A stretch of 64,000 nt of DNA from Amphirosellinia nigrospora (Eukaryota; Ascomycota; Sordariomycetes; Xylariales; Xylariaceae), in contig SCHM01000008.1 in the NCBI GenBank assembly GCA_004123355.1, forward strand, positions 801,501-865,500. Reading direction: 5' to 3'. The translations under genes were made by a program, and so were the position numbers. A model generated the notes under the pieces. It did not search any database and was not told the origin of the DNA. It was given only the letters and a program-made list of their open reading frames with translations. This document shows, one piece after another, positions 30,201 through 59,600 of the stretch; positions within the stretch are counted from its first letter, which is position 1; every line of letters begins with the position of its first letter.

Positions 30201-33200
30201 TTATTATATATTTTAAATATTTAGCTTAATATAAAACGTTTTAGTAAAAAATAAAATATAAGCTAAATTATAAAAAAATAATATAAATATTAAAAATAAT
30301 TATTATAACTTTTATAAACCTAAAAATTTATAATATTTTTAAAATTATTAATAATTTTAAATATATAATATTTTATTATAATTATAATATTATTAAAAAT
30401 ATAATAAGCAAACTTATTATAAGCTAGATTTAACTAATTAATAATATAGAAATAACTCTAAAAATATTAATGTTTATTATTTTAAACTTTTATATTAATA
30501 GCTAAAAAATTAAGCTATATTATTAAAATTACAATAATATAATAAATAAACTTATAATAATAAATATATAATAAAATAATAAATAATATATATTTTAAAT
30601 AATAAATTTAGATTAAGCTAAAAATTACTATAAAAAATATAATAATTTAAATAATAAAATTATAAAATAGTCCGGCTAATTTATTATAATTAAAAATATA
30701 TTATATTATAACGATTTAATTAATAAGTTTAAAAAATTAAAACTAAATATAAGTTTTTTAAAAATAAGCTATAAAATAAATAATTTTATAAAAAATAATA
30801 ATAAAATATTAAAAATTCGAATAAAATATTATAAACGCTTAAAAAATAACTAAATTAATTAAAAACTACAAAATTTATTTAATAAAGCTTAAAATAATTT
30901 TATTTATATAATTAAATTAATAAAAATAATAAAATAACTTTAAAAAAAAATAAATTAAAATATAGTTATAATAATTATTATAATTTATTTTAAGCTTAAT
31001 TAAATAATAATAATTATATAATATTTTAAAATTATAGTTATATAAATTATTATATTTTATAATTATTAGCTTTAAAGTTTTAACTTTATAAATTATAAAA
31101 ATAAAATATTATATATAATATTAAAAAAATTAAACTAATAGTTATAAAAAAACTAAAATTATAATATAATTATAATAATAAAAATACTATAAAACTTTAA
31201 ATTATAATTAAAAATATTATATTAAACTATATGTTTTTTAATAATATAATTTTAAAAAAGTATATTTTTTATAAATAAAATAACGTTTTTAGCTATATAA
31301 AAATGCTAAAATAATTAAGCTAATAAAATTTAATAAATATTTTTATTCGAATTTTAAAACGGTTATTAGTTAATATAGCTATAAAAATAACTTATAATGT
31401 AAAAAAAATAAAAAAAATAAAAATAATTTAATAAAAAATATATTAAAAAACTTTTAAATAATAAATAAATAAATAAAACTAATAAAACAATTTTTAGTTT
31501 ATTTAATTTAGCTAAAAAATATATTAATATTATAATATATATAAAATATTATATTAATACTAAAATAACTTATTAATAAAGCTATTATTTTATAAATATA
31601 GCTTTATATAAAAAAAACTATAAAAAAATTTATTAAAATATATTTAAATATTTATATTAAAAAATATAAAATTATAAAATACGCTAATATTATTAACCTT
31701 AAAAAAATAATTTAATAAACTATTAAATTTAATTTAATAACTAAAAAATATTATATAATAATTTTATTATAATTATAAAAACTAAATAAATTATAAAAAA
31801 GCAAACTTATTTATTATTAATATTATAAATTAAATATAAAAAGCTATAAATTATAAATAATATATTTTTATAAATTTTAAAAATAAATATTAATATATAA
31901 AATATATAGCTTATTATAAAAAAATAGTATTATAATATTTTTCGGGATATATAAATAGCTAGTTATATTTTCGGACTTTATATATATATTAACTATTTTT
32001 TAAACTTTAATAAAAAAAATCGTAAAGCTTTTTAAAAATAGCTAATAAGCTTACTTAATAATATTTATATTTAAAAAAACAAAAAAAAACTATATTAATA
32101 ATATTATATATTATTCGAACGATTAATATAGTACAATATAATAATTAACTTTATAAAAACTTTAATATTTATTAATTAAAATATATTTTTAAAATTTTAT
32201 ATATTTTAAAAAAAAAAAAAAAACTTAGCAAAAATAGCTATAAAAAAATAAACTAATATTAAAAATAATTATTAAAATATATAGATTTATAAATATAATA
32301 AGCTATTTTAAATATTTAATTAATAAATATTCGTTAATTATAATATATTATAATATTAATAAAAAACTAAAAAACTAATTAATTATATTAAATATAAAAG
32401 TTTAAAAATTTAACAAATAATTAAAAATATAATAATTATAATATTAATAATTAAAATATTTAATTAAAAATTTTTTTTTTATATAAATATAAATTTTAGC
32501 TAATTATACGTTAAAATATTTAATATAGCTATATTTTATAAAAAAAAAATAATATTTTATTTAATAGTATATTTTTCTAAAAAACTAAATAATTATTAAA
32601 TATATTATTTAGTATAAAAATAAAAACTTTTAGCTATTATATTAATATTATAGCACTAAAAATATTAAATAAAAAAAATAATTATATATATTAATTATAA
32701 ATTATTATTTATAATAAAAAATAAATTAAAATAACTAATATAAATAGTTCGATTTTTAAATATTATTAAGTATTATAATATATAAATTATATATTATATA
32801 AATAAATTAAACGTATTAGCTAATTAGCTATTAAGCCTTTTTAAAACGATTTTTTTAATAATAAAATACGATTTTAAAACGTAAATATTATTAAATATAA
32901 AAAAATAATTAATTAAACTACTATAATAGCTAAACTATATAAACCTATAAACTATATTTAAGTTTTTAAAGTTCGATAATAAATTATTATTAAATTTAAA
33001 AGTTTAATAAATATTTAAACATTTTATTATATATAAAAAAAACTATATAAAATAGCTTAATATTAACGGACCTTTAAAAACTTTTTATATTTTATAAAAA
33101 TAGCATATTAAATAGTAACGCTTTTAAAAATCTTTAAAATATTAAAATTATTATAAAAAATTAAAAATATATATATTAATTTAAAACATACTATAATTAA

Positions 33201-34543
33201 TATTTTAATATATAAAATTAATAAACAATATTAATATTTAAAAATTATTTTAATAGTATAATAAGCTATAATAAAATATAAATAATATTAATTAATAAAA
33301 CTATTATTAATAATATTATTAAACTTATAACTTATAATATTATTATTTTTATTAACGCGTTAAATAATAAATTATATATTTATAATATAATTAAAAATAT
33401 TAATATACGTAAAATATATTATAATATAAATAAAAATAGCTATAATATTTAATATATTATTTTTAAATATAATATTATTAATTATTAAAATTAAAAAAAC
33501 TTTTAAATACCCGAAAAAATAAATTAGCAATAATAAAAATACGTTTATAAATAACGAAGCAATTTAATAGTATTAAAGCAAAAATCTATAGTTAAACTTA
33601 TTATATTTAAAAAACTTAAAATAATAATAAAATAAAAAAAATAAATAAAATTTTAAGCAAATTATACTATAAAAAATTTAATATATAAATATTTTAACGT
33701 AATTACTTTATTATAAATAGCTATAAATATTTATAATTAAATATTAAAACTAAATAATTATAATAGTTATTTTTTTTATTTAGTATTTAATTTTTTAATA
33801 ATAATTATTTATTAAAGTTTTTAAATATATAAAAAATTTAACTAAAAAAAAAAAGTCGAATTTTAGCAAAGCTTAATAAAAAACTACAAAATATTTATAA
33901 TAAAAAATTATTTTAATAGTTTAAAAACTTTTAAAAACTAAATTAAAACTTATTTATAAAAAAAAAAAAATTAATTTAAACTTATATACTTAAAAACTAA
34001 ATACTATAAATATATTAATATAATAATAAAACAGAACTTTTTTATAATAAACTATAAGCTATAACGAATTATTATTATAATAATATTTATAAATTATAAA
34101 ACTTTAATAAAATTTAATTATTAAATAAATATAATAAAATTAACTTATTTTTATATATAATAATAATAGCTACTTTATATAGAATTTATAATATATTAGT
34201 TAAATAATACTAAAAAACGATCGGAAACGCTTAAAAATAATAATAAAATAGCTAGATTATAAATAGTTTTATTATAAAAATATTAGTTAAAATAAATAAC
34301 TAAAAATAGTTATTTAAAAAAAAAATAGTTATAGCTTTAAAATAATAATTAATAAAGCTTTAATAAATATTATAAACTAGCCCTACTTTATAGCTATAAA
34401 TATTTAGCCTACTATAAAAACTAAATTTAGCCCTTTATTTAATTAACTAACTTAATATATTAAGACCTGATCTATATAGCTTAAACCGCAATAGTAAAAG
34501 CCCCGTAGGTTATTTAATATAGGTTGACAAGCACGCATAAGAT
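27260..34543 (+). mobile_element. LTR retroelement copy D (fossil, complete in outline) with 6-bp target duplication
   Basis: The element spans 27266-34537, with the 5' LTR at 27266-27473 and the 3' LTR at 34330-34537, both 208 bp. LTR ends are TG...CA. TAAGAT precedes (27260-27265) and follows (34538-34543) as a target duplication. A DNA element is nested at 27922-29518; without it the copy is about 5.7 kb, like copies A and B. A purine run precedes the 3' LTR. The interior is broken throughout by RIP, with no open frame, so superfamily is unresolved. The outermost part of each LTR, next to normal DNA, is nearly unmutated, while the inner parts are ruined. Confidence 0.85.
27922..29518 (+). 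mobile_element. RIP-ruined DNA element, copy 3 (three-unit repeat form)
   Basis: Same family as the copies at 6618 and 19515. TTAA flanks both ends (27918-27921 and 29519-29522), and the uninterrupted LTR copies have a single TTAA-containing site there, so the target duplication is TTAA or shorter. Internal tandem repeats of about 77 bp occur three times (about 28563-28795), and shorter repeats of about 30 bp lie just before them. A TTAA duplication would suit a piggyBac-like element and TA would suit a mariner-like one; no transposase motif can be read. Confidence 0.6.
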
Positions 34544-34672
34544 TAAGTGGGGATAGCTTTTACCCAATTAAATAGCAACGTTTATTCTATCGGGTGATCA
34601 GGTTAATTAATTCGAGGTTGGCTAGATATCGACCACCGAGACATACAGACTCCAGCTACGTGTCTACGGATG

Positions 34673-34832
34673 TCCGAATTAATGAGGCATATGGAAGCGA
34701 GGCTAGATACAGGGTTTGAATACAAAGACCCGTGCAATATAGCTCCACGTCATCCGAATTAATGAGGCATGTAGAAGCGAGGCTAGGTACAAGGTTTAAA
34801 TACAGAGACCGGTACAATATAGCTTTACGTTT
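34673..34832. repeat. 80-bp tandem duplication
   Basis: Two adjacent units start TCCGAATTAATGAGGCAT, at 34673 and 34753, and are similar over the full 80-bp period. Most differences are G/A and C/T. The unit is not found elsewhere in the window. An open frame across it on the minus strand is only a by-product of the repeat. The block lies between the LTR element and the MADS-like gene. Confidence 0.75.
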
Positions 34833-35088
34833 ACCTAGGTATGTTTTAGACAAAAGCTGACTCCGTATTTATGGTCGTACTTCGGATAAGTCACCAAAAG
34901 CTGTGTTACAAGATAAACAATTTTGTAACTATACTACACGCTAAAAACGCCACTTGGGCACGAATACGAACAGCTTCCAGCTTCTACCTCTAGGCCTCCG
35001 ACAGTATGATATGACTCCTTGGCATTCTGATACTATGCTTATGTCTCAGAGCACGATCGGCGATCAGGACTGTTGTGTAGCTCTGTAA

Positions 35089-35715
35089 CTAAGCTCCCTG
35101 TGGCTTATCCATATGACTCATCTGATGATGCCGACCAGATCCCCGCGGCCGCCCGCGGCCTCGCTTAATGGGCTGCTGGGTGTTCCTCGCCTCACCAGCT
35201 TGTAATAACGGGGCTGCGAGTTGGCGGCTGTCGTACGGAACATGGGTAGGATGATGAATAAGTTCACCGCTGTTTAGTTGCTGAAACTGTAGGTGTTCAT
35301 TCGGTGCGATAGTTGTCGGGATGTCAGTTGACTGGCTATCGATCCCGGTGCTTATAGGTTCTGGATCAGAAATCGGTTTGATTATTCGCGAAGTGTGGGC
35401 GGGTACGAAAGTTTGGGGGTCGTAGCCTTGACTGGTGGGTAGTCGATATGCTGAGATCTTAGTTAAAGGTAAGTACAAAATTAAAGAGGAAGAAGCTCTT
35501 ACAATATCTTTTCGTGATAAAGGGAACGAGAGATCTGGATTTGATGAGTATTCGTACCACTGGCCATGGTATTTGATGGCCATATATACCTCAGCACCTA
35601 AAATTTCGTGAATTTGGTTGCCTTTGGAAAAGACGGTGCTTTTCCGCTTGTGGAATGAAGCATTGCGATTCTTGCGTTCTACGGCGTCCGTGGACATAGT
35701 ATCTGCTGCCTTCAT
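35089..35715 (-). CDS. MADS-like / AT-hook DNA-binding protein
   Basis: An intact 208-residue protein; the frame continues upstream without ATG, so the ATG at 35715 is chosen. Residues 20-58 resemble the core of fungal SRF-type (MADS) domains: basic HKRKSTVFSKGNQIHEI, then GAEVYMAIKYHGQWYEYSS, where known members have a KKA-EL-KLC-V-VAVII-NGRYYTYRS-like pattern. The middle is serine/proline-rich and probably disordered. Residues 184-195 are an AT-hook, KRGRGRPRGSGR, which binds the minor groove of AT-rich DNA. The likely role is sequence-specific DNA binding in the nucleus; regulation is inferred. It is divergently transcribed from the large gene starting near 36220, with about 500 bp between. 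A decayed homologue with the same arrangement lies at 48790-49130. Composition is normal, without RIP. The MADS assignment is by eye and the domain is shorter than a classic MADS box. Confidence 0.7.
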   Translation of the reverse strand: MKAADTMSTDAVERKNRNASFHKRKSTVFSKGNQIHEILGAEVYMAIKYHGQWYEYSSNPDLSFPLSRKDIVRASSSLILYLPLTKISAYRLPTSQGYDPQTFVPAHTSRIIKPISDPEPISTGIDSQSTDIPTTIAPNEHLQFQQLNSGELIHHPTHVPYDSRQLAAPLLQAGEARNTQQPIKRGRGRPRGSGRHHQMSHMDKPQGA

Positions 35716-36219
35716 TCGCACTCGCCCTATGGCAACGATAAAAGATGCTTTAATTAAATAATAAAAAATATATAGCTATTCTAGTTGATAGGTAAGTTAA
35801 AAGGCCTTATTTATATTGTAATATTTATTATTGTAGGGTCTTAGAACACGGATAGTTACTTAGAAAAGCTTCCTGGAAAAAAGTACCTAATGGTTCTTTT
35901 AGGAAACTTCCCGATTATTGTACAACCATAAGCCAGGCAAAGAGGACAAATTAGCTGATTCCCTCGACGCTCAACCTAGGCTCAGCTATCTTTTCAACCG
36001 AGAACACAACTTTAACTGCCCCTATTGCTTCGCACAAGCAGTCCTTTGCCCCACACCTATATGTCAAAGTCCAGTACACGTATAGTCAACTGTAGACAGT
36101 CAAGTGCTCGACTTGACAACGTTCTACCTTTTGTCGTGTTGTGGTATAGTGTGCAGTTCTGTATCATGACACTATACTTCTCCAAGTCTATAGCATAGTG
36201 CTGCAAACCCTACTTCGAA
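35716..36219. promoter_or_regulatory. divergent promoter region with two perfect palindromes
   Basis: This intergenic stretch separates the MADS-like gene (minus) and the large gene (plus), so it must hold both promoters. GTATAGTGT at 36144-36152 is matched by its inverse ACACTATAC at 36169-36177. GTCAAGT at 36099-36105 is matched by ACTTGAC at 36111-36117. Such arms suit binding by dimeric regulators, plausibly the neighbouring gene product. No canonical CArG box was seen. The left end (35740-35830) is AT-rich. Confidence 0.4.
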
Positions 36220-39096
36220 ATGACGACTCCTCACGCGCCTGTGCAGAGTGTGTGGTTGCCCTCAAGGCATGAACCGCCTCTCCTGGACGGACCACTCAAT
36301 CACAAATATCAAACAGCACAAGGCCAATGACTGGTTTCTAACATTGCACGATGCTATGCCCCAAAAATACGAAGCGCGGATGATGGCCAAGATATATCTG
36401 TTCCTTCGCCAATATATGCCAGACGGTTTTACAGGTCGATGGCTCATCTCCGTGGCAATGAAGTAATGAGGGTGCTCCTCTCCGACCGAGAAGAACAATG
36501 CGTGTCGCGGCATAAGGTTACTAAGAAGATATACTCTTCTTTAGTAAAGCTGCAAGTATGGATGACAAAAGGCCCCAGTTGGCAGGTCGCCTTAGAAAAA
36601 AGCAAGATAGAAGCAAAAGAAATAAAACCTCGCACGGCTAAACGAAACAAGCTAGAGAAAGCGCCTTTGCCTCTTTACTCGCCTGAGAGATGCCTGGCAT
36701 TTCTAGTCCTGGCATATCCCGATCGCAAATATCGGGATCTATTCGAGCGTCTTCAGCTCGGATGGCTGATGGATGACCCAAGACCTTGAACGTACAGGAC
36801 CAAGGGTTCTGGTTAGGGCTCGACAGGCGTGGCGTTCCATCCGTATTTTTAGCGGAGAAGGCTCTTCCGGCGAATAAGAACATAAAATGCAGTCTCGACT
36901 ATAATACATTGTTTGGCGCCTTATTCCCTAAATGCAGAGAGGACATCACACCATATCTGCCATCAGAAGAATGGGCCCAGGGTCTTTGTTTAGGGACGGA
37001 AGGCACTAATAATAGTGCCGTCGAAGACGAAGCAGTTGATGATGTCGATGTTCCTATTATTGATGTCACTTCCAGTGACCCGGACACGGACGACGATAGC
37101 TCCCTAGGGCTCTCTTTCGCCACCTCCCTGAGTGACGCCATGACTAGCAACGCCGAGCCTTCTAGTCTCCCGGAAGACCTTTCCAAGCCCGCCAGCACGT
37201 GGACAGATCTCGGCATCGCTCGCCATCTTAGGGCAGATGATAGGTCAGACGGGACGCTGCCCGCGTGGGTCGGTAGCCTTCTAGGCCAGACACACGATAC
37301 CTTCACTGTGATGAGAACATGGTGTTTTTTGGCAGAAACGGATGTCGGCTGCTAACACGGCCAAGGACCAGCTTATAACCCGGTCGCTCATCTTACAAAG
37401 CGCCCGCATCATCAGGAGCTTCCACACTTCTCCCGCGATAGCAGTAGCGGATGCATATATGCTCCTTGATATAGGCGCCTGGGACGAGTTATCGACAGAT
37501 TGCCCAGAGCCGCGAAGCAATCTAACGAGGATCCCCCAATTTGCCGCGTACTGCAAGGCAAAAACCGGCTCATCCAATTAGGCAACGCGAACGAAGAGGC
37601 GACTAACCTCTGCCGCAAAATCTTTACGCGGCAAGCCGAGTATTTCTACTCCACCCAAACAGACCCCAAGCTTTTTCGACATGCAAAAGATTGTATGAGG
37701 TTGGCCGAGATCCGCTTAAATATCCTCGCCCGTGGATTCGTTCCAGGTAGGGCACCGGCGCCGTTTCAACATAGTCGACTATGGGATACCACGGTATTGT
37801 CAGCACTACAAGTATCGCACTGGCAAGCCTTAGCGGCCATGCAGCCCGATGCCGGCCTACGGTCTGTCCTAACTAGCTATCAATCGCAGATATACAACGA
37901 AAAGTATCAAGCAGAAGACCGCACTTTACTGACCAACGTCTTAAATACGCCAGTGCTCTCTATCCAAAGTTATATAGGGAGTGCCAAACTAAGGATCGTG
38001 ACATTCTCACTGCTCTTTTCGGTGCCCTAGAGCTACCTGCCCAACAGCAATCGACACTAGCCTTCCCGTCTATTTCGAATGAATTAGCATCCCGAGGGCC
38101 TGAAAAGGAAACGCAGCACCAGCCTGCCCAGTCTGCCCAGCCTCCACAAGCCCCCGAACCTCTACAAAAGAGCAACAACCCTAAAAAGAGAGTGTCAGCA
38201 GTACATCTAAGACAAGACACAAACCCGTATACTCCACAAAACCCAAAAAGAGGAGCTAGCAAAACGAACAAAATGAACCGTCTGCCGCTATATCAACCGT
38301 GAAGAACGATAGAAACCCGTACGGCAAAGCCACAGGTGGCTCTACCGCGCGGCTATCCAGAGTTGCAACTCGTGAGAGCATATTAAAGGATGAACTCAAA
38401 AGCCTGAAAGATATACTGGACCTACTCCAAGAGTCGCAGGGCAAACTGCAAGACCTATTCCAAAAGTTACAGGACAAAATGCAAGACCTGTTCCTAGAGT
38501 CACAGGGCAAAATGCAAGAACAAACAACCCAAATCATAGAGAAAAAGCTTGACTCTACAGTACAAGCAATAACTTCAACTGTAGAAGGGCGGCTAAACTC
38601 GTTTTCTACCCAGCATACTAAGACACATAAGGAGCTGGTTAATATAGTTACAGACTACCTCGGGCTACATAAGAAAAGTCACGATGAGTCCCTGAGCAAG
38701 CTAGTTCAGGTAAACCAGAAAGTAATTGCTACTATGAACGAAGAATCTCTTGAACGGAAAGAAGCGGATAAGGCGATTGTTCAGAAGATAGACAGCAAGT
38801 TTGACGATATTAAGGCTTTGTTGTCTAAAGTGCCGTCCGTTGGCCAAGAAGGCTATCTCGCTCGTCACTGCCCGGCACCAGGTACGATGGCCCCTGCCAC
38901 GTATGAGCATGCTCTCATCCGGGCAGCAATCTATTACTTTAGCCTCTTTACCGATACCGACAACTCTCTTGGCAAAGATTACGGTGCAATGGAAGAAACT
39001 ATGAATCGTTATCCAGAGCTGGTCCCCGGGCACATTGATATGGCGATCGAACATTTACACCATATAGCATATGGACACTCGATGGACGATCCATAG
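36220..39096 (+). pseudogene. large coiled-coil protein of unrecognised family, copy 1, in several frames
   Basis: I do not recognise the family. Coding-quality sequence of normal composition runs across about 2.9 kb (about 950 residues), but the reading frame changes about six or seven times. Main open stretches are 36248-36466, 36439-36789, 36777-37355, 37315-37581, 37470-38030, 37907-38300 and 38260-39096. The shifts behave like single-base changes, mostly losses, some beside homopolymers. Comparison with the homologue at 44355-47628 shows the sequence around them is coding, so they are not introns. Order: helical N-terminal region; block YSPERCLAFLVLAYPD...LGWLMDD; acidic Ser/Asp-rich linker (about 37010-37180); block KDQLITRSLILQ; helical region; Gln/Pro-rich basic stretch (38100-38280); coiled coil (38380-38830); conserved C-terminal block GYLARHCPAP...TYEHALIRAA. 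No signal peptide or membrane segment is evident. It is divergent from the MADS-like gene. Confidence 0.65.
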
Positions 39097-39668
39097 TGTT
39101 AAAATTAGGGGGCTGGTGAGAAGAATATTATGGGTTGTAAAGTAAAGCTTGATTAAGGAAGAGAATTTATTATTAGATCCACGCAGTGGATCTAATAATA
39201 GATTCTCTGATTAGTAGTATGCCAGCTGTCTATCTAGATTTAGGTGTTACCAGGTAGCTTCCCCCTACGCTCCGCGCAGGGAAGCCACTAGCAATATAGA
39301 CCTCTTAAGGGCTCTATCAAAATGCCAGGGCATAAAAAAATCTCTGCTAACCTTAGCAGATCGATCTAGCTAAGCTATATTATAATTATAATTCTTTTTA
39401 TATAATATCAAGTAATACCGTTGCTTATTCTATCTCTTTTACTACTTTATCTATAGGTTGTTATAACCTAGAACTTCGTTGACAAAAAAGCTTAGCAAGC
39501 ATAAAAATAACCGCAAATATATCAGGTGCTAAAATAACAACGGCAAAAACATCAGCGGGAATTAATACCGGAGTAAAAGCTTCAGTCACTTTACGTAGCC
39601 TCCTACAACAGCGCTTGCCAGGTCTAAATATAAATAGCAGCTTTATAAAAAGCTGCTTTTTTTTTTTT
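39097..39668. other. hairpin-rich 3' flank of the island
   Basis: After the large gene no coding frame is seen. Besides the 22-bp hairpin there is GCTTCCC/GGGAAGC at 39257-39285 around a GC-rich loop, TCTGCTAA-CC-TTAGCAGA at 39343-39360, and a hairpin AGCAGCTT...AAGCTGCT at 39636-39657 followed by twelve T. The T-run marks the edge of the island, and AT-rich DNA follows. The pattern suggests the remains of a small structured mobile element, not identified. Confidence 0.45.
39161..39207. other. near-perfect 22-bp inverted repeat (hairpin)
   Basis: Arms at 39161-39182 and 39186-39207 differ at one position and are separated by only GCA; the centre reads AGATCCAC-GCA-GTGGATCT. It lies 65 bp downstream of the large gene's stop codon. 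It could be a foldback or MITE end, or a transcript 3' hairpin. Confidence 0.7.
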
Positions 39669-42370
39669 AGTAGTATAAAATAAAAGCTATGCTTAAACTA
39701 ATACTTATTAATAAATTCTTATAAGTATTAAAAATAATATATTAAATACTAACGGTTATATTTATATTTTTATTTTTTTTATTTAATTAAATAATCGAAG
39801 TTATTTTTTTTAATTAAAATAATATTTAAATATAATTTTTACTTTATAATATTATTTTTATTATTATTATTAAAATATTAGTTAGTTTTAACGGGCTTTA
39901 ATAATAGTATTATTTGTTTAAAAAAGTTTTATTATTTTTATATAGTTATAATTACGCGATAAAAATAATAAAATATATATAATAATATTTAAAGAAATTT
40001 AGTTCGTAAGCTAAGTTATTAATTTTACGTTTAATAACCTAAGGTTTAATATATTGCTACGAATATTTTCTAAAAAATTCGCCGGGTAAATAATAATTAT
40101 TATATAAGCAGAAAAAAATTTTATTATTTAGTTTAAATTTTAATATTTAATATTTATTATTAAAATGTTTTTTATTATAGCAGTAGCGAAATTTATAGCT
40201 AATTTAATATTTTATTATAAATAATTACGTAAAAATTTAACGTTTTTAAAGTTATATATATTTATTTAGTTTATAAATATATTAAAAAAGCTAAAAAGCT
40301 TAAATTTAAATAATTATTTATATAAAATAAATTATATAGTTTATAAAAACGTAAAATTAAAGTTTTATTATAAAATAAAGATTATATTAAACTAGTTCGA
40401 TTTAAAATATATATAGTTATAAAAATATATTATAATTTTAATTATTTAGTTTTTTTTTCGGATAAACTATTTTTTTGTAAATAATATATAATAGTTATTA
40501 ATAATTTAATATTTAATATTTTTTATATATTTTTTAAAAGTTAAAAATAAACTTATAATCGCGATTAAAAATAATTTTTTTAAAAATATTTTAATTATTT
40601 AAAAATAATTGTTTAATTAAAACTATTGCTTAGTTTTCGGCGGTATATTTTATATTACTAAAAATTATAAACGTTTGTTTAAATATATAATAAAAAACTA
40701 TTATTATATAATTATATATATTAAAACTTTTTAGCTATTATAAAATACTTTATAATTTAATTAAAAATAATAATAAAATAAAATTAATTACGATTATTTA
40801 TATTAATAATATATTTTTAGGTTTAATTAAACATAAGCTATTTATTAGTTTTTATTTATTATTATAATTAATATTATATTCTAAATAATATTTATAGTTT
40901 TTTAATATACTATAATTTTTTATAGATCGAATATAGTTTTAAAGCTTTTATTATTTAATTAAATCTAAAATAATATTTTTTATTATATATAATATATAAT
41001 ATTCGTTCGCGTATTATATATAAAATATAAAATCGCTTAATTTTTTATATTTATTATAAATTAAACCGTTTATAATAAAAAATAAATACCTGGCTTTAAA
41101 AAAAATAATAGCGTTTTTATTATTATATAGTTTACGAAATTAATCTTAGCAAAGTTTATCTAGGATTTTTTATAATAAAAGTTTATTTTATATTTTAGCT
41201 CGAAATTACGTTTAAACGTATTATTTATTATTATTTTTATAGTATATTTTACTATATTTTATATAAAATTTAGTATAATAAGTTTTTATAATTATTTTAA
41301 TTTATTTTTTAAGTCGATAATATTTTATATTATAATAAATTAATTTAACATATTTAAAATATAATTAAAATATTTTAATAAATAAAAAACTTAAAAACTA
41401 TATTATAATAAATAAACAAATAAATTAATAAATCGATTATTTACTTTATTAATAATAAAAATATTTAATAAAATTTAATTAATAATATTTTTATAGCTAA
41501 ATAATCTATTAAAATTATTATATAATATTTATTTAAATAAATTATAATATAAAGCTTTTTTATAATTTATATAAAATACGCTATTTTTTATTTAAAAAAG
41601 CTGTACTTAGTTTTAGTTTATAATAAATATCGATTTAAATATATAACTAGTTATATTTGCGTAAAAAGTATAAGTTTGTTTAGTTTTTATTTAAAACTTA
41701 GTTTAATATAAAAAATTATAACGTTAAAACTTTATTCGAAATATTTATCGATTTATAAATATAAAATATAATCTAGGTTATAATAATAAAACATAGTTTT
41801 AAAATAAATAATATTTTAAATAATATTAAAAAAACTATTTTAATTAATATAAAGTTATAATATATAATTTATATGTAATATTTATAATAACTTAGGTTAT
41901 TATTTATTATTTTTTTTTTTAATAATTTTTAGCTAATAAAGCTATTTTATATTTTTATAAAAGCTCGGCTAATTATATATAATAAAAGAAAAAATTATAG
42001 AAAAATTTATTTATACTAAAATATTGCTTAAAAACTTAAAAGTTCTTAAAAAATATAAACTATTTAAACGTTTATATACGTTTAATAATAATAAATATTT
42101 TTAAAATATTAATATAAAATTTAAAAAATTTAACGGAAAAATAACTAATAAAAAACTTTTTTAATAATATAATAATTTTTTAATTAAAATAAACTAAAAA
42201 TAATATTTAAATACTATATATATTTTTAAATATATTAAAAAAAATAATAATATTATTAATAAAATAATAATAAAAATAAAAAAAAATAAAAAAACTTATT
42301 TATATATTTTTAAATATAACTAAAAAAATTTATATATTTTATTATACTAAAAATTATTATCGGCTATAAT
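39669..42370. repeat. AT-rich RIP-ruined block
   Basis: Composition is as in 1-6123: almost no C except in CG and AGCT contexts. No open frame and no match by eye to the LTR family or to the 1.6-kb DNA element. It separates the two islands that carry the two divergent gene pairs. Identity is unresolved. Confidence 0.65.
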
Positions 42371-42649
42371 AATACTTAATATAGCAATATGCAATTTCTT
42401 TAAGCTATTAGTTATTAGCAGGTTTTTTACGCACTACTTTGTCCTCCAAGTACTTCCCGGGTATCGTTTTCTAACCCCGCCACATCTTACGTCATGTCTG
42501 CAAATCGGTCGCAAACCGCAATATGGGCTCCTAGCCGGTCATTCAATCTTAACTCTTATGTAGAAGCATAACGAATAAAAGTCGTAAGCAGATCCAGCAT
42601 TTTATTTTAGGCGTCAAGCTAAAATAAAGACCGCGAACCGAACCTCTAT
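42371..42649. other. left edge of the large intermediate island
   Basis: Composition rises from AT-rich to near normal within a few tens of bases around 42371-42420. No gene or terminal repeat recognised. It may contain the promoter of the zinc-finger gene that follows. Confidence 0.35.
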
Positions 42650-44192
42650 TTGTTGAGATCGTCAGCTACGGTTGCTACCGCTAACCTCGATCAAAAGCAA
42701 AGACTCCGGTCTATTCGCCAGGCAAACGCGTCTAGCAAAAGACTTCATAATTATTACGAAAAGCGGGGGCGTCCGACTAAAAGCCAGAACAATAAGAACA
42801 ATGGGGCGGATTCTGGTCCAAAGGCTTCGGATGAAGAACTAGAAAATAGATGTATATTTTGCACCTACCCTATTGATACGCAGTTTAGATACTAATGTCG
42901 TATCTGCCCTAACTATTAATTGTGCGCGCGATGCGTTCTAAATGCTATGGTTGCACACCTAAATTACAACTTTGTGTTTATGTTAGATAATACTTCTAGT
43001 ACTGCTAGAGCAATAGCGGCCAAGGTACGGTCGGAAAGCATAGTTCTGGCTGCTGAGATACTTAGAGGTTAGGAAAAAACACCGGCAGTAAATAAATCAG
43101 TGTCTACAACAAGCTCTGCTTTAACTTTCCCCGCAAGACCTACAGGAACCCCGGTTATAGAAAGGAATATAAGGGCGAGAGACTGCAACTAGCACGCGTT
43201 CTTGGCTACAGAGGCCACTAGCACAAATAACATCCTACCTTTAACACTACAAGCTAATAGCACAAAGGCTAAAACTATATTAACCCCACGATTTTCTTTA
43301 TTGTATTACTACTGCTATAAATCGCTTGCCGGCACTCTATACTACTAGTGCCAATAATGTGCGAATAAGTATTTTTGTAACGGTTCTTGTTGGACTATAT
43401 ATCCGCCGCGGTATATTTTTTATGCTATCCCGGCTTTCGACAAGGAGGGGCAAGGCAAGAGCGGATATATTGATCCAAGAGACTACAGTTTAGCATTTAA
43501 ACAACCTACAGCCGGAAATGGTTCAGTTTACCCTACGCCCTACAACTCTAGAGAACTAAGTTAAGAAGACCTTGGGCATATGGACTATGTCTTTCCAAGT
43601 TATAAGGATTTAACCCCGTGGATTTTGTATATGTGGGCTTAAGTGACAACGGTCCGGACTACAAGGCTTCCGATTTAGGGCGAGACTTTGAGACTAACTC
43701 AACAGTGCTAACTTTTGAAGGCTTGCCTTTTAAAAATATAAGCGAAGAATCCGACAACGATAGTTTTGGGCAAAACGTGCTATAATTACCCCTAGACATA
43801 GGAACCTTGTTACAAATGTAAAAAATACTGGAAAAAACATAGCGTATGCTTATAAAAGCGATAGCAGGTTATTAAACACCTGTGAGCCACAGCAGTACGG
43901 GCTACGTTCGCGGGGGGTTAAGGTTAATTTTCTTTTATGTTTGCGTCGAAGTCCACAAAGGAAGCATTTCTCTAAGACCAATATTGATCCTTTCTTTAAT
44001 GCTAGGGATTATCCTAAGCCTTATAAACAACGGAATCGCTAGTGGGATAAAGAAGATAACGATTAATTAGCTGCTATGAAAAAAAAGATTGGCTTGATAA
44101 AAAGATTGGTAAAAGGATTAATTGGAGTACGAGTGCAGTCTTTCAACAGTGGAGGAAACTATAACTCTAAACAAGTCGGTACAAATAGTTTA
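42650..44192 (+). pseudogene. decayed protein with AT-hook-like motif and ZZ-type zinc fingers
   Basis: One frame can be followed from 42650 to about 43645 despite several in-frame TAA/TAG codons that look like altered glutamine codons. It starts with a helical basic region with KRGRPTKSQ (AT-hook-like, about residues 38-46). A cysteine-rich module follows, with CIFC, CRIC and CARC pairs and a trailing histidine, spaced as in ZZ-type zinc fingers (about 42810-42975). A second, weaker module (about 43300-43380) reads GTLYY, CANKYFCNGSC and lacks part of its first cysteine pair. Around 43760-44192 a neighbouring frame stays open with a basic C-terminal region. ZZ fingers usually bind peptides or histone tails; role here is unknown. 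The gene is dead as read, with intermediate RIP-like damage. Confidence 0.5.
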
Positions 44193-44354
44193 TAATTCTA
44201 TTGTTGTCTTTAATGCTAAAGTAATACTAGGTTAAGGAGTTACTATAAGTACTATACAAGGGCACAAGGTATCTATTATATAATAACTTTCGACGAGATT
44301 ACCTTAGTCGAAATAGCAATCGGTTCAATTTTATTTTTCTTGTAAACTAATAAA
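44193..44354. other. gap between convergent decayed genes
   Basis: Short region between the plus-strand zinc-finger gene and the end of the minus-strand large gene. A plus-strand stretch with mostly hydrophobic codons is readable but not assignable. Confidence 0.3.
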
Positions 44355-47300
44355 CTACTTAACTAATGGCTGCTTATATATGTGAAGACAAATATGTTTT
44401 AACGCTATAACGACGTGGTTTGTATTAAGACCTGGAAAATAGGTTATTACTTCCGTTACAATGTCCCCGTTTTCTTGGACCGGTGCAAATGGGTCGCCAT
44501 GGAGCCGTAGGTAGAAGAAAACGGCCTGTAAAAGCATGTGCTCGTATGTGGTTTGGTTTATTGTTGGCGGCGAGGGACAATGTTGTGTTAGGTAACCAGC
44601 TTTTCCTAACGCCGGGGATGGCTTCTATAACATGTCTTGCAAGTTATGGAGTATGGTGTTTATAGAGTCGGCCTATGCTTTGGTCGGCATATGTTGTAAT
44701 TCGCTGTTTAGAATGTGTAACAACTTATCGGTTACTCTAGCTAACTTATGATTAAGCAAAAAGGCTATGTTATTTTGTATTAAAGACTTTAGCTTGTTGT
44801 TTAGCGCGCCCTCTATTTGCTTATTGATGCGGTTATCGATTATGCTTTCTAACTAGGCGTTCGTGAGTTAGTACTTGATTATTGTATCAAGTTTTTTGTC
44901 TAGCTTTCGTTGGAAGCTTTGTATATTAGGTACCCTAAACCGTACGATTTTTTTCACCGTTGTAAGAGATATCGAGGTCGATTCCACGATGCTATAAACT
45001 TGCTCTATTGTTGGGGCAGCAGACTAAACGGTATCTATCTAACCAAGCCTTTGTTCAAAAGCATTAACCTAGGCTTGTAAAGTGTTTTTTTGTTTATTGA
45101 GTTAGGATGAGCTGTTTTCCCCCGTTTTTTTGAGCGTGTTTGAGAGGCTGTCTAGTTGGGTTTTAATATCGACAAGCGCTCGATCTTTGGCTTGATTATT
45201 CGTGTTGAGCTGGCTGTATCGTTTTTCTAAAACATCTAATTTGTTTTTAGGGTTTGCATCTCGGTTTCTACTTTTCTTTTCTTCGCGAACTACCTATTCG
45301 GACTTCCTTTACAGCCACGTTTCTTGTTCGCCTATAGTATCGGCTGGGCTGATTGATCCGCTATCGGTAAGATATTCTCTCCGAGGATTTGGTGCTAAGA
45401 CTTGCTTTATCCGTTTGCGTTATTGTGCTCGTTAACGGGTATCTGTATTTGTCCGTCCTAGAAGTTAACGGCAACGATGGGAATACCGGTCGACTTGACA
45501 AAATGCCCCTTGGGTTGTTTTGAATAATCTGGGGGTTTACGTTAGGTGTTAGGGAGTGCGATGTTGGAACAGGAAAGAGCTCAGAAGCTAATACATCTAG
45601 CATAGTAGGAGACCGTATTAGAGCGTTTAGTATTGGTGTGCCTCGGCCAGACTGATGTTTGGAGGTGTTGATATACATAAGATCAGAACCTGGATCCGTT
45701 CTAAAGGCTACAACAGGAGTGGGCGGGAGTGAGAGTTCGCCGATTAGAAGACGATATAACTCCTCTTTCCTGGGATCGGACAAGTAGGAACCGCCCTTGA
45801 CCGGCCCGACAATGGCTGGCGGCATAGTAGAAGAGTCGAGATAAAGCAAAACTGTACTGCTAAGGTTGGCGACCTTAGAATCATATAGATTATTTTGGAT
45901 TTTAGTTAGTATGATTCGCTTATCTGCATTTGGTGATATTAAGGCATGTAGTTGCTAGTTCGTAACTTTGAGCAGAGTGGCATGGTTTTATACATTTTTT
46001 TCTATAATACCTATGGGGTTCTCTCGAAAGCTTCTCGCGATAATATCTGTGCGCAATTTGTCTATTAAGATTATATTATGTTAATAGTCATAGAAGTTTT
46101 CATTTTTCCTAATTGAAAGGAAATATGTATCTTGTTGTGTTATAATGCTTTCTAAGACGGTGGGTACAAAGTTGCCCGGTTCATTGCTAAGATTTTTAAC
46201 TTTATTGATAAGCTGTTGGTTTAGGTTCGCGTATTGTTCGTATATTTTAACTATACTTAAAGCTTCGGCTGTACCGGGTTCTATAATAGCGTTGTTTACC
46301 CGGCTATCACTAATATCTAGTAATATAAGCGCCTCCACCAACCCGGTTGGTGCATTACTGCAACTTGCTAGTTTGCCAACACCCTATAGGATTAGTGACC
46401 GCACTACCTGCTGATCTTTATAGTTCCTAGCGGTGCGTATGCGTTTAGACTAGTGCGTACACCATGCTATAGATGGGCTGCTATCTTTTGCGTTGAGGAC
46501 TATTATAGATAGCTATTCTATTACCTTTTCGGACAAGTTTTGATATTCTAGGTACAAGTGTTTGCATATATCGAATTCGTTAGGCAAGGTAAGGTCCACT
46601 GGCTCGATCGGAGCCGAATCTTGCTCTATTCGCCCATCTAGGTCGGGGCAAGAGCTCCCGGTATATAACAAAGACTCCTAATCTGCTTTATAGGAGGCAG
46701 CAAGGCTAATTCCGTTAAAACTGTTGTTACCTATATCTACGTTGATTTTAAGAGAACTAACCAGCTTTATCCCTTGTAACTAGTTTTTGTCCAGCACATG
46801 CGGTCGAATGTTTTTCCTATATTTAGTAAAAGACTCGCTAAAAAGCCTAGTATAATCAAAGAGCAGATCCCTTAGCGCAAGTTTAATGGTTAGCTCGGCC
46901 TGGAAGACTTTATGAACATTTATAATATTAATGCTACTTTAAAACCCGCTCTTCACGTCGAAAGTGTTACGCATATCTATTATCCAACCGATATCAAGGT
47001 TTATTATAATATTATAAGTTTTAGTACTAGGGTATACTAACACTAGCAACACTATTATCCTCGATGGAGATAGAAGCGAGGGTGCTTTTGTAATGGTTCG
47101 TCTAAGGGCTCGTTTTTTATTCTAGTTCTTAGCTTGCTAAATCTAATTGTTAAGGCGGTTCTGAGCTATAGTCTAAGCTTTTTGCTAATTCTGGGCGTTG
47201 CCTTTCTAGGCTTTAAGCGCTTTAAAGCTAGTTTCCGCACTCCGCGAAAGCGTATAACGTGAGTTGTACTGGGCTTTTTCGTTGAGATCTGAGCATAGCT

Positions 47301-47628
47301 TATTCATCACATCTGTCCTACGAATATAAGCCTACTTACTAGTTAACCTATGCAGCATGTATAAGCGCAAGTAAATGTAGAATTTAACTAATTGCCTCGA
47401 CTAGACAGCATTGCCACATTTATTATTGATTTTAATAGCTATTCTAAAGAACTAGTTAGTATTACTATTCTTCGCGATAAAGTTAAAATATACATTTTTC
47501 TGTTTTAACAAAATATCTCCTATAAAGAGCAGCCATTCTAACTTCGTAGATTGCTTTTTTAGTAAAGCTAATTGCTTAACATTTTTAGTAATTGCGCTAA
47601 AGAGTCGCCTTTTTTGTTGGCCAGGCAT
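44355..47628 (-). pseudogene. large coiled-coil protein of unrecognised family, copy 2, decayed
   Basis: A single frame on the minus strand can be followed from an ATG at 47628 (MPGQQKRR) to the stop at 44355, about 1090 codons. It is interrupted by many TAA/TAG codons that mostly look like changed Gln or Trp codons. It is homologous over its length to 36220-39096: LSPSRIIVLLVLVYP...IGWIID matches YSPERCLAFLVLAYP...LGWLMD; KDQQVVRSLIL matches KDQLITRSLIL; the C-terminal GYLTQHCPSP...TYEHMLLQAV matches GYLARHCPAP...TYEHALIRAA. The middle has a Ser/Pro-rich region (45361-45849) and then a coiled coil (about 45000-45240). Identity is clearly partial, so it is an old paralogue. It is divergent from a decayed MADS-like gene, the same arrangement as copy 1. 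The clean longest stretches are 45361-45849 and 46081-46341. Confidence 0.7.
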
Positions 47629-48789
47629 TTTGTTGCTTGTCTGAAATGTGACCGTATTGATAATTAATGCCGGGGAGAGATTTCTCTGACTTTGGGAGTT
47701 TCTAAGTTTTGCGACAGGAAGGTCTGTTGTACGAACTGACGTAACCTTGGCTTTACGGCTTAAAACTGGTGTGTTGTCTCCGTTTTAGCATGCCAGAACT
47801 ATAAATATTGTTTCCCGCCAATTTACCTGTTATAATTAGGCGTTATGTAATATTATACTGCAAGTCTAATTTCAAGTTATGCCACCATCATAATTCCTAT
47901 GCGGCCGATCGGCGCAAAAGCCAAAACACCGTCCCTAGCCTGTACACACCCGTATACGTTAGTCTCCATGTAATTTTCGACTGCTGTCTCACCCTGGTGC
48001 TGGCCTCGGGATTGCTATACGAAGACGTCCAGCTTGTTGCTAGATAGCATTTGGTTCAGGACATACCTAAGCAATGTACATTAGTCCGTACCGACTACTT
48101 TAATCGAAGTCTATCTTGTATTTCAATTTAAAAAATGCCATATTTTGTCTTGGACCTTAACTTGTAGAGATACCAAAGTGGTGCGTAGGGTATATTAGTA
48201 TGTCCTGATAAAATGCGCAGGGTAGAATAAAAGGCAGCGCGGTTTATTAGTAGGGCTTCATAGGAAAGTGATAGCTCAAGTATCTATCCAAAGTTTGAGC
48301 AACTTAGTCCCTCATAGCCGTAAGCGACCCGCATGGGGAGGCTTTAGCGCTTATAACATTAAACGCCAAAGGTTTCCCCGCCCTAAGCGACTGTATTTCT
48401 CACAGCTATAAAAAACCTACTAAACCCAACCTCTTAACTTTATAAGCGACTAGCAGTTTCCGGGGTCGTCATATTAGTCCAGGGCATAGGATTTACTGCG
48501 TGTAAGCGTATAATCAAATATTTCCTAACTTGCACGCTATACCAGCCACTTTATAACTCTATCCCCATATACGATCAAGCACGCATTATCCAAGCAGGAA
48601 ATTTGCAACAAAAGCCCCAGCTATCTCGGATAACGTTCGGGACTTTGATCTACGCATATCATAAAGGCTACATAAAAAGTACCAGAGCAAAAAAGAGACG
48701 ATAGCTAGCTTTAGAGTAGGTGAACCAGCTAGTATCATCTATTGTCTGTTTGAATGTTTCCTTTATCAGCTTCGCCAACAAGCTATTAT
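47629..48789. other. intergenic region of the second divergent pair
   Basis: About 1.15 kb separates the large gene's start and the MADS-like fragment, longer than the 0.5 kb in the first pair. A plus-strand open stretch at 47808-48047 (79 codons) has no recognisable feature and may be chance. The palindromes seen in the first promoter were not found here by eye. Confidence 0.4.
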
Positions 48790-49130
48790 AGGCAAGATAA
48801 CACCACAGGCCATAAAGCTAGGAGCAAAGAAAGAATCCGTTTGCTTTGACCAAAAAAAGTATCAAATGTTCTAGGGTCGCAAAAACATACTGTTCTAAAA
48901 AGCTGACCAGCTTTACCAACTTGTGGGTGCCGAAATCTATATCGCTATTAACTATAAGGGTCATTAGTATAAGTACACTACTCAGGACAACTTAAATTTC
49001 CCCCCACTCGAACTGCCATTATAAGTCCTTTCTTCCTCGACTAAATACTTTCGTCGCTTATTCCATTTGTCAAAACAAAGTATACCCAATATCTAGGGTT
49101 ACGCTTACGGGCCAGTTCTCTTTACCCCAG
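48790..49130 (+). pseudogene. decayed MADS-like protein, copy 2
   Basis: One frame reads GRKNILF-stop-KADQLYQLV and GAEIYIAINYKGH, then YKYTT, LNFPP and, later, GYAYGPVLFTPAT. This follows the intact protein at 35089-35715 from its basic motif (KRKSTVFSKGNQIHEIL, GAEVYMAIKYHGQWYEYSS, LSFP) to its GYDPQTFVPAHT segment, a match of roughly 90 residues. The tryptophan after GH is a TAG here and several glutamines are stops, as expected from G-to-A and C-to-T change. An AT-hook is not visible; a basic stretch RRTSKRYNRKR near 49880-49920 may be its counterpart. It is transcribed away from the large gene's copy 2. Confidence 0.65.
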
Positions 49131-49359
49131 CAACATAATGTAAAGAATACTAAAGCCGCGGATAATAATGGTGATTTAACTGCCACATACTAAATTGCTG
49201 CTCAACAACCCCCTTCAAGTAATCACTCGTTTATGCATCTCTAAGTCTTCTAAGGGCTCTACTTAATAGGCCCTTACTTCAACGCTTTATTATCCGCCGC
49301 AAATAACCTATAATCACAATCCACTACCGTCTATTATTCCTAACAGCTATAACAACAAT

Positions 49360-49922
49360 ATGGACAATACATCGACCACTTCTCACAGTTCTGCATCGAA
49401 TATCTATGATCTATTTATCTACGATCTTTTAAATAATGAATCAAATATACAAGAGGATGAAGCCGTTCTTATAACTAGATCTGACCTTCAAACAATCTAT
49501 ACCATCCATCGGCCCGCCTACCACTTCTCTTCCGCAAACACCAATACCTCGTCTGCACCCTGGCTTTAAACCGACTTATTATGCCCCTCGCAACAACGCA
49601 GCACTTTAACACTCTCTCCCGAAGTCTCTGCTCCTCAAGCACTCTCACAAGCTCTCCATTCTACTACTTAGGTATACTCTACCTCAGAGCATCCGTCGGG
49701 CATCGCTAAACGAGGTATATCATCGCTGCTCCAAAGTCCGTCGTTTATACGTGGCTCTGGTACTTACTTATATAACCAACGCTAACTTGTTTTTGGTCTA
49801 CCGCTCGTTTCACATTAAGCACTTTTAGTGCTGCAGTCAAGTAAGCTTTACAAGCTAACACCGATTGCTCGCAATCAAAGACGTACAAGCAAGAGATACA
49901 ACAGGAAACGTTGTTAAGGTTA
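49360..49922 (+). pseudogene. decayed coding stretch, possibly the C-terminal part of the MADS-like gene
   Basis: An open stretch at 49360-49569 (Ser/Thr-rich, then LFIYDLLNNES, LQTIYTIHRPAYHF) continues in the same frame with few stop codons to about 49920, ending in a strongly basic region. It follows the MADS-like fragment on the same strand, so it may encode the disordered tail of that protein. No domain is recognised. Confidence 0.35.
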
Positions 49923-50318
49923 AAAGTTAACGTGACCAGCCTCTAACATTTTCCGCTATTACGATTCTTCTTGTATATTACCGTTATTAGTTTCCTCTGG
50001 GCTGTTATTAAGGCTTGCTTTAAGTTAAAATATGGATGTGTTGGTTATAATATAGGGTTATTATAGAAAAGACTAAGAAGTAAAATGAAAGCTAGCCTAA
50101 TATAATCTTATTAACATCGTTCAAAATAATGACGGTAGTATCTATGATTTTTTAGATTGTTATAGCAATTAAACAGATGAACACGTTTTCGCATTTTGTA
50201 CACTTTAATGGGGTTAATAATGTTGGCATAATATCTTTCTAGCAAGCACTGCACCATGCTGGCAGTTCTTTCTCCTCGTCCACAATCAAAGTCTTGGTCG
50301 GCGGATCTGATGTTAATG

Positions 50319-52560: not shown

Positions 52561-53280
52561 ATATGCAGGAAAATAATCGACTAGCATTATCTCTCTGGAG
52601 CCTTTAGCATCTAGTTGACCACACATAACGTAGGACTTGTATCAAATTTGAAATGGAGGTATACAGGGCCATAGAAGAACCCAGTAGAGCAGAGCATAGC
52701 TCATTTCATTGCATAAACTTATCGCAGCACCGCAATACCTAAGTAGCTACGTATTCCAGGACACACCGGTAACGGTCCAGCATTCTCATTTCGGGCCACT
52801 AATGTACAAGTAATAGCTTCCTATCAAGGACAGACATTTCTACCGATTGGCGCCTCGTATTAGAAAATATAATAGTCTAGATTCTTGCAGAAAGAATGCA
52901 GGAGGTAGGTAGGGCCGGATAGGTACGGTAACATCCGGACAGCCACATAGCGTACGAGAGTAAGTATTGTTTTTTGTAGTACAATAGCACATATATACGG
53001 TGGGATTTTAACAAACATAGTTTAGCATAAACGGCGGGCACTATCCGTCTGTGGAGGACTTTAAATGCCTACACATTGTTGATACACTCAGTACTACCTA
53101 GGTACGTAGATTACATAGGCAATCCATGGGTACCGCTCCGTCAGTCCTATACGAAGTCATTTGTCGCTAAACCAAAAATAACAACGCTTAGCTAAATTTT
53201 AGTTTAATACGAGCCCAATTCTTCTATCTTTCAAAAACCAACCCACGTTTTCTTTATACTTTTTAGCCTCTACATTTCAC
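52561..53280. other. no gene recognised
   Basis: Intermediate-composition sequence with scattered stops in all frames. One TACCTAGGTA palindrome lies at 53095-53104. It probably includes the upstream region of the plus-strand gene starting at 53281. Confidence 0.4.
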
Positions 53281-59140: not shown

Positions 59141-59600
59141 GAAAGAGCAACCTGAATCTGGGCGCCTGTCGAACAAAAGACAAGCCTCGTAGGAACAAAT
59201 TGCTTCTCTATCAAAAGACGTTAATTAAGGTAAGGTATATACTTATAAGCAGTTAGTTCTAGATACTCTAGCAGCTATCTAGTCCATAGTTGGTTAATTC
59301 ATTAACACCCATCTTATCCACTCTATTAAGCATTAAAAAGCTTGCAACAAAACAACCTTAAAAGTTTAGTATTGCTAAACTATACTAATGTTTTATATAT
59401 GCCGACTAGCACCTAAATATAAATTATACGTAGACATTTCTTATTACCTAAGAATTTAAGAGCCTTATAATCAAATACGCCACTTTTAGTATAGCGAGGT
59501 TCTCGGCTCTATTATCGTTTTAGCCACAGTTCTCGCTAAATATACAAAGTCAGCTCGATCTCCTAAGTTGACTTATCGATCTTGTCCTCCTAAGAGGTAA
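59141..59600. other. 3' flank of the recombinase remnant, nothing recognised
   Basis: A plus-strand frame stays open to 59256 (Lys/Arg-rich) after the zinc finger and may be the end of the recombinase protein. The rest shows no feature. Confidence 0.35.

What the first reader, a model, noticed from the sequence alone, without database searches (positions are those of the whole stretch)
35089..49922. A conserved head-to-head gene pair occurs twice in mirror orientation
Seen: the intact MADS-like/AT-hook gene (35089-35715, minus) diverges from a large coiled-coil gene (36220-39096, plus). A diverged homologue of each lies at 48790-49130 (plus) and 44355-47628 (minus), again diverging. The large proteins share at least four blocks along their length, and the MADS-like proteins about 90 residues. 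Inference: the genes travel and probably work together, as a mobile or selfish two-gene module or as a regulator with its partner. I know of no described system with this pairing.
Basis: partly seen in the sequence, partly recalled or inferred. Interest (0 to 1): 0.85.

Follow-up and report, generated by a model that had tools for sequence, protein, structure and literature searches.

The report
Two decayed MADS-like/coiled-coil gene pairs
A fungal chromosome region carries two very different old copies of the same back-to-back gene pair, a small DNA-binding-type protein beside a large coiled-coil protein of no known family, which suggests that the two genes belong together, although neither pair reads as fully intact and what they do is unknown.

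Summary
Copy 1 (MADS-like gene 35089-35715 minus; large gene about 36269-39096 plus) and copy 2 (large gene 44355-47628 minus; MADS-like relic 48791-49135 plus) are homologous: the large proteins align with score 388, against at most 54 in 20 shuffles and 44 in 5 control stretches; the MADS-like proteins match at 35% over 85 residues (E 3e-11). Both pairs are head to head, as mirror images.

Corrections: the large gene of copy 1 has at least four frame changes that introns do not explain. Copy 2 is riddled with TAA/TAG stops, which face Gln/Trp codons more often than chance: the mark of RIP (repeat-induced point mutation). RIP covers 42.4-50 kb throughout but mainly the edges of copy 1's island, so copy 2 was probably once repeated: indirect support for mobility or duplication.

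The small protein is MADS-like by profile and predicted fold, both weakly. The large protein matches no known family. A DUF3435 recombinase relic (Starship-captain type) lies 8 kb away but points away from the pairs, so Starship cargo is not shown. No fungal genome collection was available, so linkage elsewhere is untested. Best reading: an accessory regulator-partner module.

The parts
35089..35715 (-). Copy 1 MADS-like gene (MADS1), intact 208-residue ORF
   Evidence: ORF list; Pfam SRF-TF E 0.00094, 19 bits, below the 26-bit cut-off; predicted helix plus beta-hairpin
35545..35691 (-). MADS-like fold of MADS1, residues 9-57: helix 9-39, strands 44-49 and 52-57
   Evidence: AlphaFold2 model, block pLDDT 73-82 for residues 11-60, mean of the whole 49.9; the 28 best Foldseek rows are MADS-box entries or complexes, best E 0.019
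35140..35166 (-). AT-hook-like motif KRGRGRPRG near the C-terminus of MADS1
   Evidence: read from the sequence; that RGRP is the AT-hook core is recalled, not tested by a profile
35716..36268 (.). Shared upstream region of copy 1 (to the ATG of the homologous frame)
   Evidence: no canonical MADS-protein site found in 35716-36219
36269..39096 (+).
   Evidence: alignment to copy 2; five pieces in changing frames match copy 2 in one frame; ORF list
38833..39057 (+). Best conserved C-terminal block of the large protein
   Evidence: tblastx, 75 columns, 33%; predicted small helical region, block pLDDT up to 83 in a model of mean 60.0
44355..47628 (-). Copy 2 large gene (CC2), 31 in-frame TAA/TAG stops counted (one probably natural, two at a frame change); start codon at 47628 not supported by homology
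47629..48790 (.). Shared upstream region of copy 2
48791..49135 (+). Copy 2 MADS-like relic (MADS2), with 5 stops
   Evidence: tblastn E 3e-11 to MADS1; own SRF-TF match E 0.0024, 17.7 bits, profile positions 6-39; stops
42400..50000 (.). Stretch RIPed throughout, containing the ZZ-like relic, CC2 and MADS2
   Evidence: composite RIP index positive in 16 of 16 half-kb windows from 42251 to 50250, lowest 0.04; 50-55 kb is mixed and 55-61 kb is RIPed too, so its right edge is not sharp proof of a unit
42623..43090 (+). RIPed relic with a ZZ-type zinc-finger-like stretch, convergent with CC2; possible third member of the block
   Evidence: Pfam ZZ E 0.00095, 19.4 bits, just under the 21.4 cut-off

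Best explanation
The window holds two anciently diverged, partly decayed copies of one divergently transcribed two-gene module in a repeat-rich, RIP-affected part of a filamentous fungal genome. Shown: homology of both genes between copies, the same head-to-head layout, RIP-type decay of copy 2, frame changes in the large gene of copy 1 as assembled, and a MADS-like fold prediction for the small protein. Inferred: the small protein dimerises and binds DNA through its MADS-like domain and, in copy 1, its AT-hook-like motif; the large protein oligomerises through its coiled coil and acts with it, so the pair works as a DNA-binding regulator plus partner expressed from one shared upstream region. 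The module spread by duplication or on mobile DNA, and extra copies were inactivated by RIP. Which DNA it binds and what it regulates are not known.
For: Homology of the large proteins over most of their length, score 388 against at most 54 in 20 shuffles and 44 in five control stretches. MADS-like homology E 3e-11. Same divergent layout in both copies. Both MADS-like proteins match SRF-TF on their own at nearly the same profile positions, and the model of MADS1 matches MADS-box structures first, though with E no better than 0.019. Long helices in the C-terminal third of the large protein, at modest confidence. The 36 copy-2 stops are 9 TAA, 27 TAG, 0 TGA; of 27 large-gene stops aligned to a copy-1 residue, 8 face Gln or Trp against a 5.7% background (P 9e-5); without the two stops at the frame change it is 7 of 25 (P 4e-4). 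RIP index positive in 16 of 16 windows across the copy-2 stretch; in the copy-1 island high in the two edge windows, with 6 of 9 inner windows negative.
Against: Only one window was examined; both pairs may descend from a single duplication, and linkage may be mere inheritance. SRF-TF scores are below the curated cut-off (19 and 17.7 against 26). No CArG, MEF2 or Mcm1 site stands out in either upstream region (one Mcm1-like match in copy 2, 1.63 expected), and the two regions share no significant similarity (best E 0.25). No AT-hook is visible in MADS2. Neither pair reads as fully intact, so nothing shows that the module works today. Three inner windows of copy 1 have positive RIP indices (35401, 37901, 38401), perhaps from coding composition. 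Parts of the wider region without the pair are RIPed as well (55-61 kb), so RIP may mark a larger repeated segment and not the module. No relative was found in viral contigs, prokaryote genomes or plasmids, none of which is a fungal collection.
Confidence: 0.45

Rival explanations
1. The pairs are cargo of large mobile elements (Starships or derelicts of them) moved by a DUF3435 tyrosine recombinase. The two genes travel because the element does, not because they work together.
For: A DUF3435 relic lies in the same GC island, with Pfam matches at about 57.6-58.7 kb, plus strand (E 1.2e-13, 4e-16). A PDDEXK_12 gene stands alone in another island, as might be expected of accessory DNA.
Against: The captain is always the first gene of a Starship (PMC11623301, passage; likewise PMC12134995, passage). 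From my own knowledge it reads into the element, so a plus-strand captain at 57 kb would put the body to the right, away from the pairs. No element boundary was found. [quoted passage not shown] 'MADS' occurs 0 times in the two Starship papers in which I searched for it.
Confidence: 0.22
2. An ordinary host gene pair that was duplicated as a segment and inverted, the copies then drifting into pseudogenes in a RIP-active, repeat-rich region, without mobility or joint function.
For: Layout is that of an inverted duplication; both large genes are broken; flanks are RIPed AT-rich DNA.
Against: The large proteins are about 27% identical and there is no nucleotide similarity left, so any such duplication is old. 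RIP of copy 2 implies a near-identical duplicate, and none is in the window.
Confidence: 0.23
3. A selfish two-gene unit such as a toxin-antidote or killer pair kept in accessory DNA.
For: Two divergent genes in repeat-rich DNA, partly decayed, are compatible with it; nothing more.
Against: No toxin-like domain came up in the Pfam searches; localisation signals were not tested. A MADS-like protein is not a usual antidote (own knowledge). Nothing here tests drive.
Confidence: 0.05
4. The frame changes in copy 1 are assembly errors, and copy 1 is an intact working pair. (This can be true together with the best explanation.)
For: Three of the four firm frame changes (placed near 36419, 36775, 37336, 37558) lie within 15 bases of a homopolymer of four or more, though with 36 such runs in 2.9 kb this is not far from chance. 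The MADS-like ORF is intact; inner copy-1 DNA shows little RIP; the PDDEXK_12 gene is also split over two frames.
Against: Copy 2 has more homopolymers (22 against 11 runs of five or more) but no firm frame change in the matched stretches 47472-45847 and 45119-44391, against four in copy 1.
Confidence: 0.3

Closest known systems
MADS-box (SRF/MEF2/Mcm1-type) transcription factors
   Same: Predicted long helix plus beta-hairpin; the 28 best structure rows are MADS-box entries or complexes; both copies hit SRF-TF at nearly the same profile positions.
   Different: Below Pfam's gathering score; divergent in sequence; pairing with a large coiled-coil gene and an AT-hook-like motif were not seen in the papers listed by my searches.
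Starship elements with DUF3435 captains
   Same: A DUF3435 relic in the same island; RIP-affected surroundings.
   Different: The relic points away from the pairs; no boundaries, direct repeats or captain-first layout shown.
Divergent regulator gene pairs such as the HD1/HD2 mating-type genes of basidiomycetes (recalled)
   Same: Head-to-head gene pairs with strongly diverged copies in one genome.
   Different: No homeodomain was found; unrelated proteins; a resemblance of layout only.

Membership tests
MADS-box (SRF-TF, PF00319) | Score above the curated Pfam cut-off | tested here: not met
   MADS1 19 bits and MADS2 17.7 bits against 26; hence called MADS-like, not filed as a member
MADS-box (SRF-TF, PF00319) | MADS fold (long helix followed by beta-hairpin) | tested here: inconclusive
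   Predicted at moderate confidence; MADS-box entries rank first but the best Foldseek E is 0.019
MADS-box (SRF-TF, PF00319) | Binding to CArG-type sites | not testable with these tools
   No enrichment of such sites in the shared upstream regions; binding itself untested
Starship cargo | DUF3435 captain as first gene, reading into the element that holds the pair | tested here: not met
   The only DUF3435 match found lies at about 57.6-58.7 kb on the plus strand, the pairs to its left; the inward direction of captains is recalled; sequence beyond the window was not available
Starship cargo | Element boundaries with flanking direct repeats | not tested
   No empty site or related genome available; repeat searches within 34300-39800 and 42380-50000 show no convincing terminal repeats
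RIP-inactivated duplicated DNA (copy 2) | C-to-T changes in CpA context giving TAA/TAG stops at former Gln/Trp codons | tested here: met
   9 TAA, 27 TAG, 0 TGA; 8 of 27 aligned large-gene stops face Gln/Trp, background 5.7%, 7 of 25 without the frame-change stops; RIP indices
Toxin-antidote or meiotic-drive pair | Killing by one product, rescue by the other | not testable with these tools
   No experiment possible; no supporting domain found

The most novel reading that the evidence does not exclude
The pair (perhaps with the ZZ-finger gene) is an undescribed selfish or mobile module of fungi in which a MADS-like protein chooses the DNA site and the large coiled-coil protein, of no known family, carries out or supports its spread or maintenance.
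Probability: 0.1. Interest if true: 0.8.

Novelty: new variant of a known kind. Interest (0 to 1): 0.42.

Why it matters
If the pairing holds across fungi, it would define a new two-component family: a MADS-like DNA-binding protein with a dedicated large partner, living in repeat-rich accessory DNA. It would give a handle on a large protein with no known domain, and a test of whether gene modules other than Starship captains help to shape such compartments.

Tried and rejected
External relatives: four scans of viral contigs (with the MADS-like protein, 26 and 58 with the C-terminal part of the large protein), one of prokaryote genomes with a 115-residue N-terminal piece and one of plasmids with the C-terminal piece gave none; these collections are not fungal. 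The window's own genome is not held, so strain and genome-wide tests were impossible.

PDB by sequence: no match for MADS1 at E up to 1; three matches at E 0.035-0.044 for the C-terminal part of the large protein, taken as chance. Its fold search gave nothing meaningful (best E 0.23). Pfam matches to pieces of the large gene are all below cut-off and were treated as chance.

Terminal repeats: only AT-rich chance-like pairs around copy 1. Promoter sites: none enriched. Introns as the cause of the first four frame changes of copy 1: rejected because the homology is continuous there; for the fifth an intron is possible. Starship cargo as best explanation: set lower because of the relic's direction. 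RIP leakage as the cause of copy-2 decay: disfavoured because RIP in the copy-1 island is strong only in the edge windows.

Literature: ten searches, seen as listings. Of 27 papers found, 25 were listed and none of these held both 'Starship' and 'MADS-box'; one search found 0 papers holding 'MADS-box', 'AT-hook' and 'filamentous fung'. Passages only were read in PMC12134995, PMC5415576, PMC11623301, PMC10294615 and PMC12289983.

Full report
Setting. The window looks like DNA of a filamentous fungus, by its RIP landscape: long stretches of mostly 5-15% G+C surround islands of about 35-53% G+C at roughly 25-27.3, 34.5-39.6 and 42.4-61 kb. In the AT-rich stretches CpA/TpG is strongly depleted (substrate index 0.05-0.21 in the AT-rich kilobases from 24 kb on; 0.06-0.44 for 1-24 kb) while CpG is not. 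This is the pattern of repeat-induced point mutation (RIP), which turns C to T, almost always at CpA, in duplicated DNA (PMC10294615, passages). No whole genome is held for this window, and the species is unknown.

The observation. Copy 1: an intact ORF of 208 residues on the minus strand (35089-35715) faces a large gene on the plus strand ending at 39096. Copy 2: a large gene on the minus strand (44355-47628) and a MADS-like relic on the plus strand (48791-49135). tblastn finds the MADS-like pair at 35.3% over 85 residues, E 3e-11, and three collinear blocks of the large genes, E 2e-9, 5e-4 and 1e-14. A frameshift-tolerant alignment joins the large genes from 36311 to 39057 with 236 identities in 885 aligned residues and score 388. 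Shuffled proteins give at most 49 in 8 shuffles and 54 in 12; five control stretches, one being the reverse complement of copy 1, give 34-44. The N-terminal part alone scores 300 and the C-terminal part 177, so the coiled coil does not carry the result. At DNA level the two islands share nothing (0 blastn hits at E up to 1). No significant third copy was found in the window.

The large gene of copy 1 is not an open gene as assembled. Five of its single-frame pieces, which lie in changing frames, match copy 2 in one frame from 47472 to 45847 with no frameshift on the copy-2 side. That makes four firm frame changes in copy 1, placed near 36419, 36775, 37336 and 37558, inside nearly ungapped homology, so introns do not explain them. 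A fifth change (placed at 38350; two steps by the ORF map) falls between about 37955 and 38290, where homology is not established: the piece 37880-38299 scores only 47 and out of order. Copy 2 changes frame in the corresponding stretch (between 45847 and 45119), so an intron there is possible in both. Three of the four firm changes lie within 15 bases of a homopolymer of four or more, but such runs are common (36 in 2.9 kb). Assembly error is possible; against it, copy 2 has twice as many runs of five or more (22 against 11) and no firm frame change. The ATG at 36220 is in a frame that stops at 36328; the homologous frame has its ATG at 36269.

Decay of copy 2. I counted 36 in-frame stops: 9 TAA, 27 TAG, 0 TGA. 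One (44355) is probably the natural end and two (45361, 45420) lie at the frame change, so about 33 are premature. The other two frames have 17 TGA among 203 stops, so the lack of TGA alone is weak evidence. Stronger: of the 27 large-gene stops aligned to a residue of copy 1, 8 face Gln or Trp, against 5.7% in the background (P 9e-5); without the two stops at the frame change it is 7 of 25 (P 4e-4). This is expected if CAA, CAG and TGG were turned into stops. The composite RIP index is positive in 16 of 16 half-kb windows across 42.25-50.25 kb, the lowest 0.04. In copy 1 the two edge windows are high (0.67, 0.79), while of 9 inner windows 6 are negative and 3 (35401, 37901, 38401) positive. 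Leakage of RIP from AT-rich flanks therefore seems to reach only about 0.5 kb in that island and does not explain RIP across the whole copy-2 stretch, which probably once had a near-identical duplicate. The two pairs in the window are far too different to have triggered RIP on each other. This is inference from how RIP works, not a demonstration of mobility; and since 50-55 kb is mixed and 55-61 kb is RIPed too, the repeated segment may have been larger than the module.

The small protein. SRF-TF is the only Pfam match of either copy at E up to 1, at E 0.00094 and 0.0024, both below the curated cut-off. The model of MADS1 has low overall confidence (mean pLDDT 49.9) but blocks of 73-82 over residues 11-60, forming a helix (9-39) and a hairpin (44-57). 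The 28 best Foldseek rows are MADS-box entries or complexes (one is FAK with MEF2C); the best E is 0.019 and none of 258 matches reaches 0.001. I call it MADS-like. It carries KRGRGRPRG near its C-terminus, an AT-hook-like motif by recall; none is seen in MADS2.

The large protein. No family match passes a cut-off. The C-terminal third is predicted as long helices followed by a small helical region, at modest confidence (mean pLDDT 60.0); its structure search gives nothing useful. The best conserved part is the C-terminal block 38833-39057. The N-terminal two thirds were not modelled.

Surroundings. A PDDEXK_12 gene (E 1.4e-30 and 2.2e-9 in two frames, matches within 25551-26523) lies in the 25-27 kb island. 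A DUF3435 relic has Pfam matches at about 57.6-58.7 kb on the plus strand; by eye the gene may span 56.5-59.2 kb. [quoted passage not shown] Its direction would place an element to the right, away from the pairs (that captains read inward is recalled). A relic with a ZZ-type zinc-finger-like stretch (E 0.00095, just under cut-off) lies convergent with CC2.

Mechanism. Most likely (0.45) this is a regulator-partner module: a MADS-like DNA-binding protein and a coiled-coil protein expressed from a shared upstream region, spread by duplication or mobile DNA, with extra copies silenced by RIP. Steps shown: homology, layout, decay, fold prediction. Steps inferred: dimerisation, DNA binding, partner binding, joint function, spread. 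Against it: no CArG, MEF2 or Mcm1 site is enriched in either upstream region, and these regions share no significant similarity.

Limits. Negative scans of viral, prokaryote and plasmid collections say nothing about fungi. The literature searches cover open-licence papers only and were seen mostly as listings.

Noticed in passing
25551-26523, minus (gene perhaps to 27200 by eye): PD-(D/E)XK nuclease-like gene (PDDEXK_12, E 1.4e-30 and 2.2e-9) alone in a GC island, split over two frames.
   Followed up: partly
56500-59200, plus: RIPed relic of a DUF3435 tyrosine recombinase (Starship-captain type), Pfam matches at about 57.6-58.7 kb; by eye followed by a zinc-finger-like stretch near 58.9-59.1 kb.
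   Followed up: partly
42623-43590, plus: RIPed relic with a ZZ-like finger (E 0.00095) and by eye a second cysteine-rich stretch that had no Pfam match.
   Followed up: partly
34455-34559, also near 6.5, 13.6, 19.0-19.5, 24.7, 25.4, 27.4 and 55.7 kb: A dispersed repeat, at several borders of GC islands and by eye less RIPed where it touches an island.
   Followed up: partly
34673-34830: Two tandem copies of a 78-base unit downstream of MADS1, 87% identical.
   Followed up: no
39160-39208: Hairpin with 23-base arms, 96% complementary, 3 bases apart, just downstream of CC1.
   Followed up: no
38419-38517: Three in-frame copies of a 33-base repeat in the coiled-coil part of CC1.
   Followed up: no
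37955-38290 and 45847-45119: Both large genes change frame in corresponding poorly conserved stretches, perhaps a shared intron.
   Followed up: no
53200-55000, plus: Readable stretch with mixed RIP signal and no Pfam match at E up to 0.01; possibly a gene of unknown family.
   Followed up: no
1-24900, 28000-34000, 40000-42300, 61000-64000: Extremely AT-rich stretches (mostly 5-15% G+C) with CpA/TpG strongly depleted: unusually saturated RIP.
   Followed up: partly
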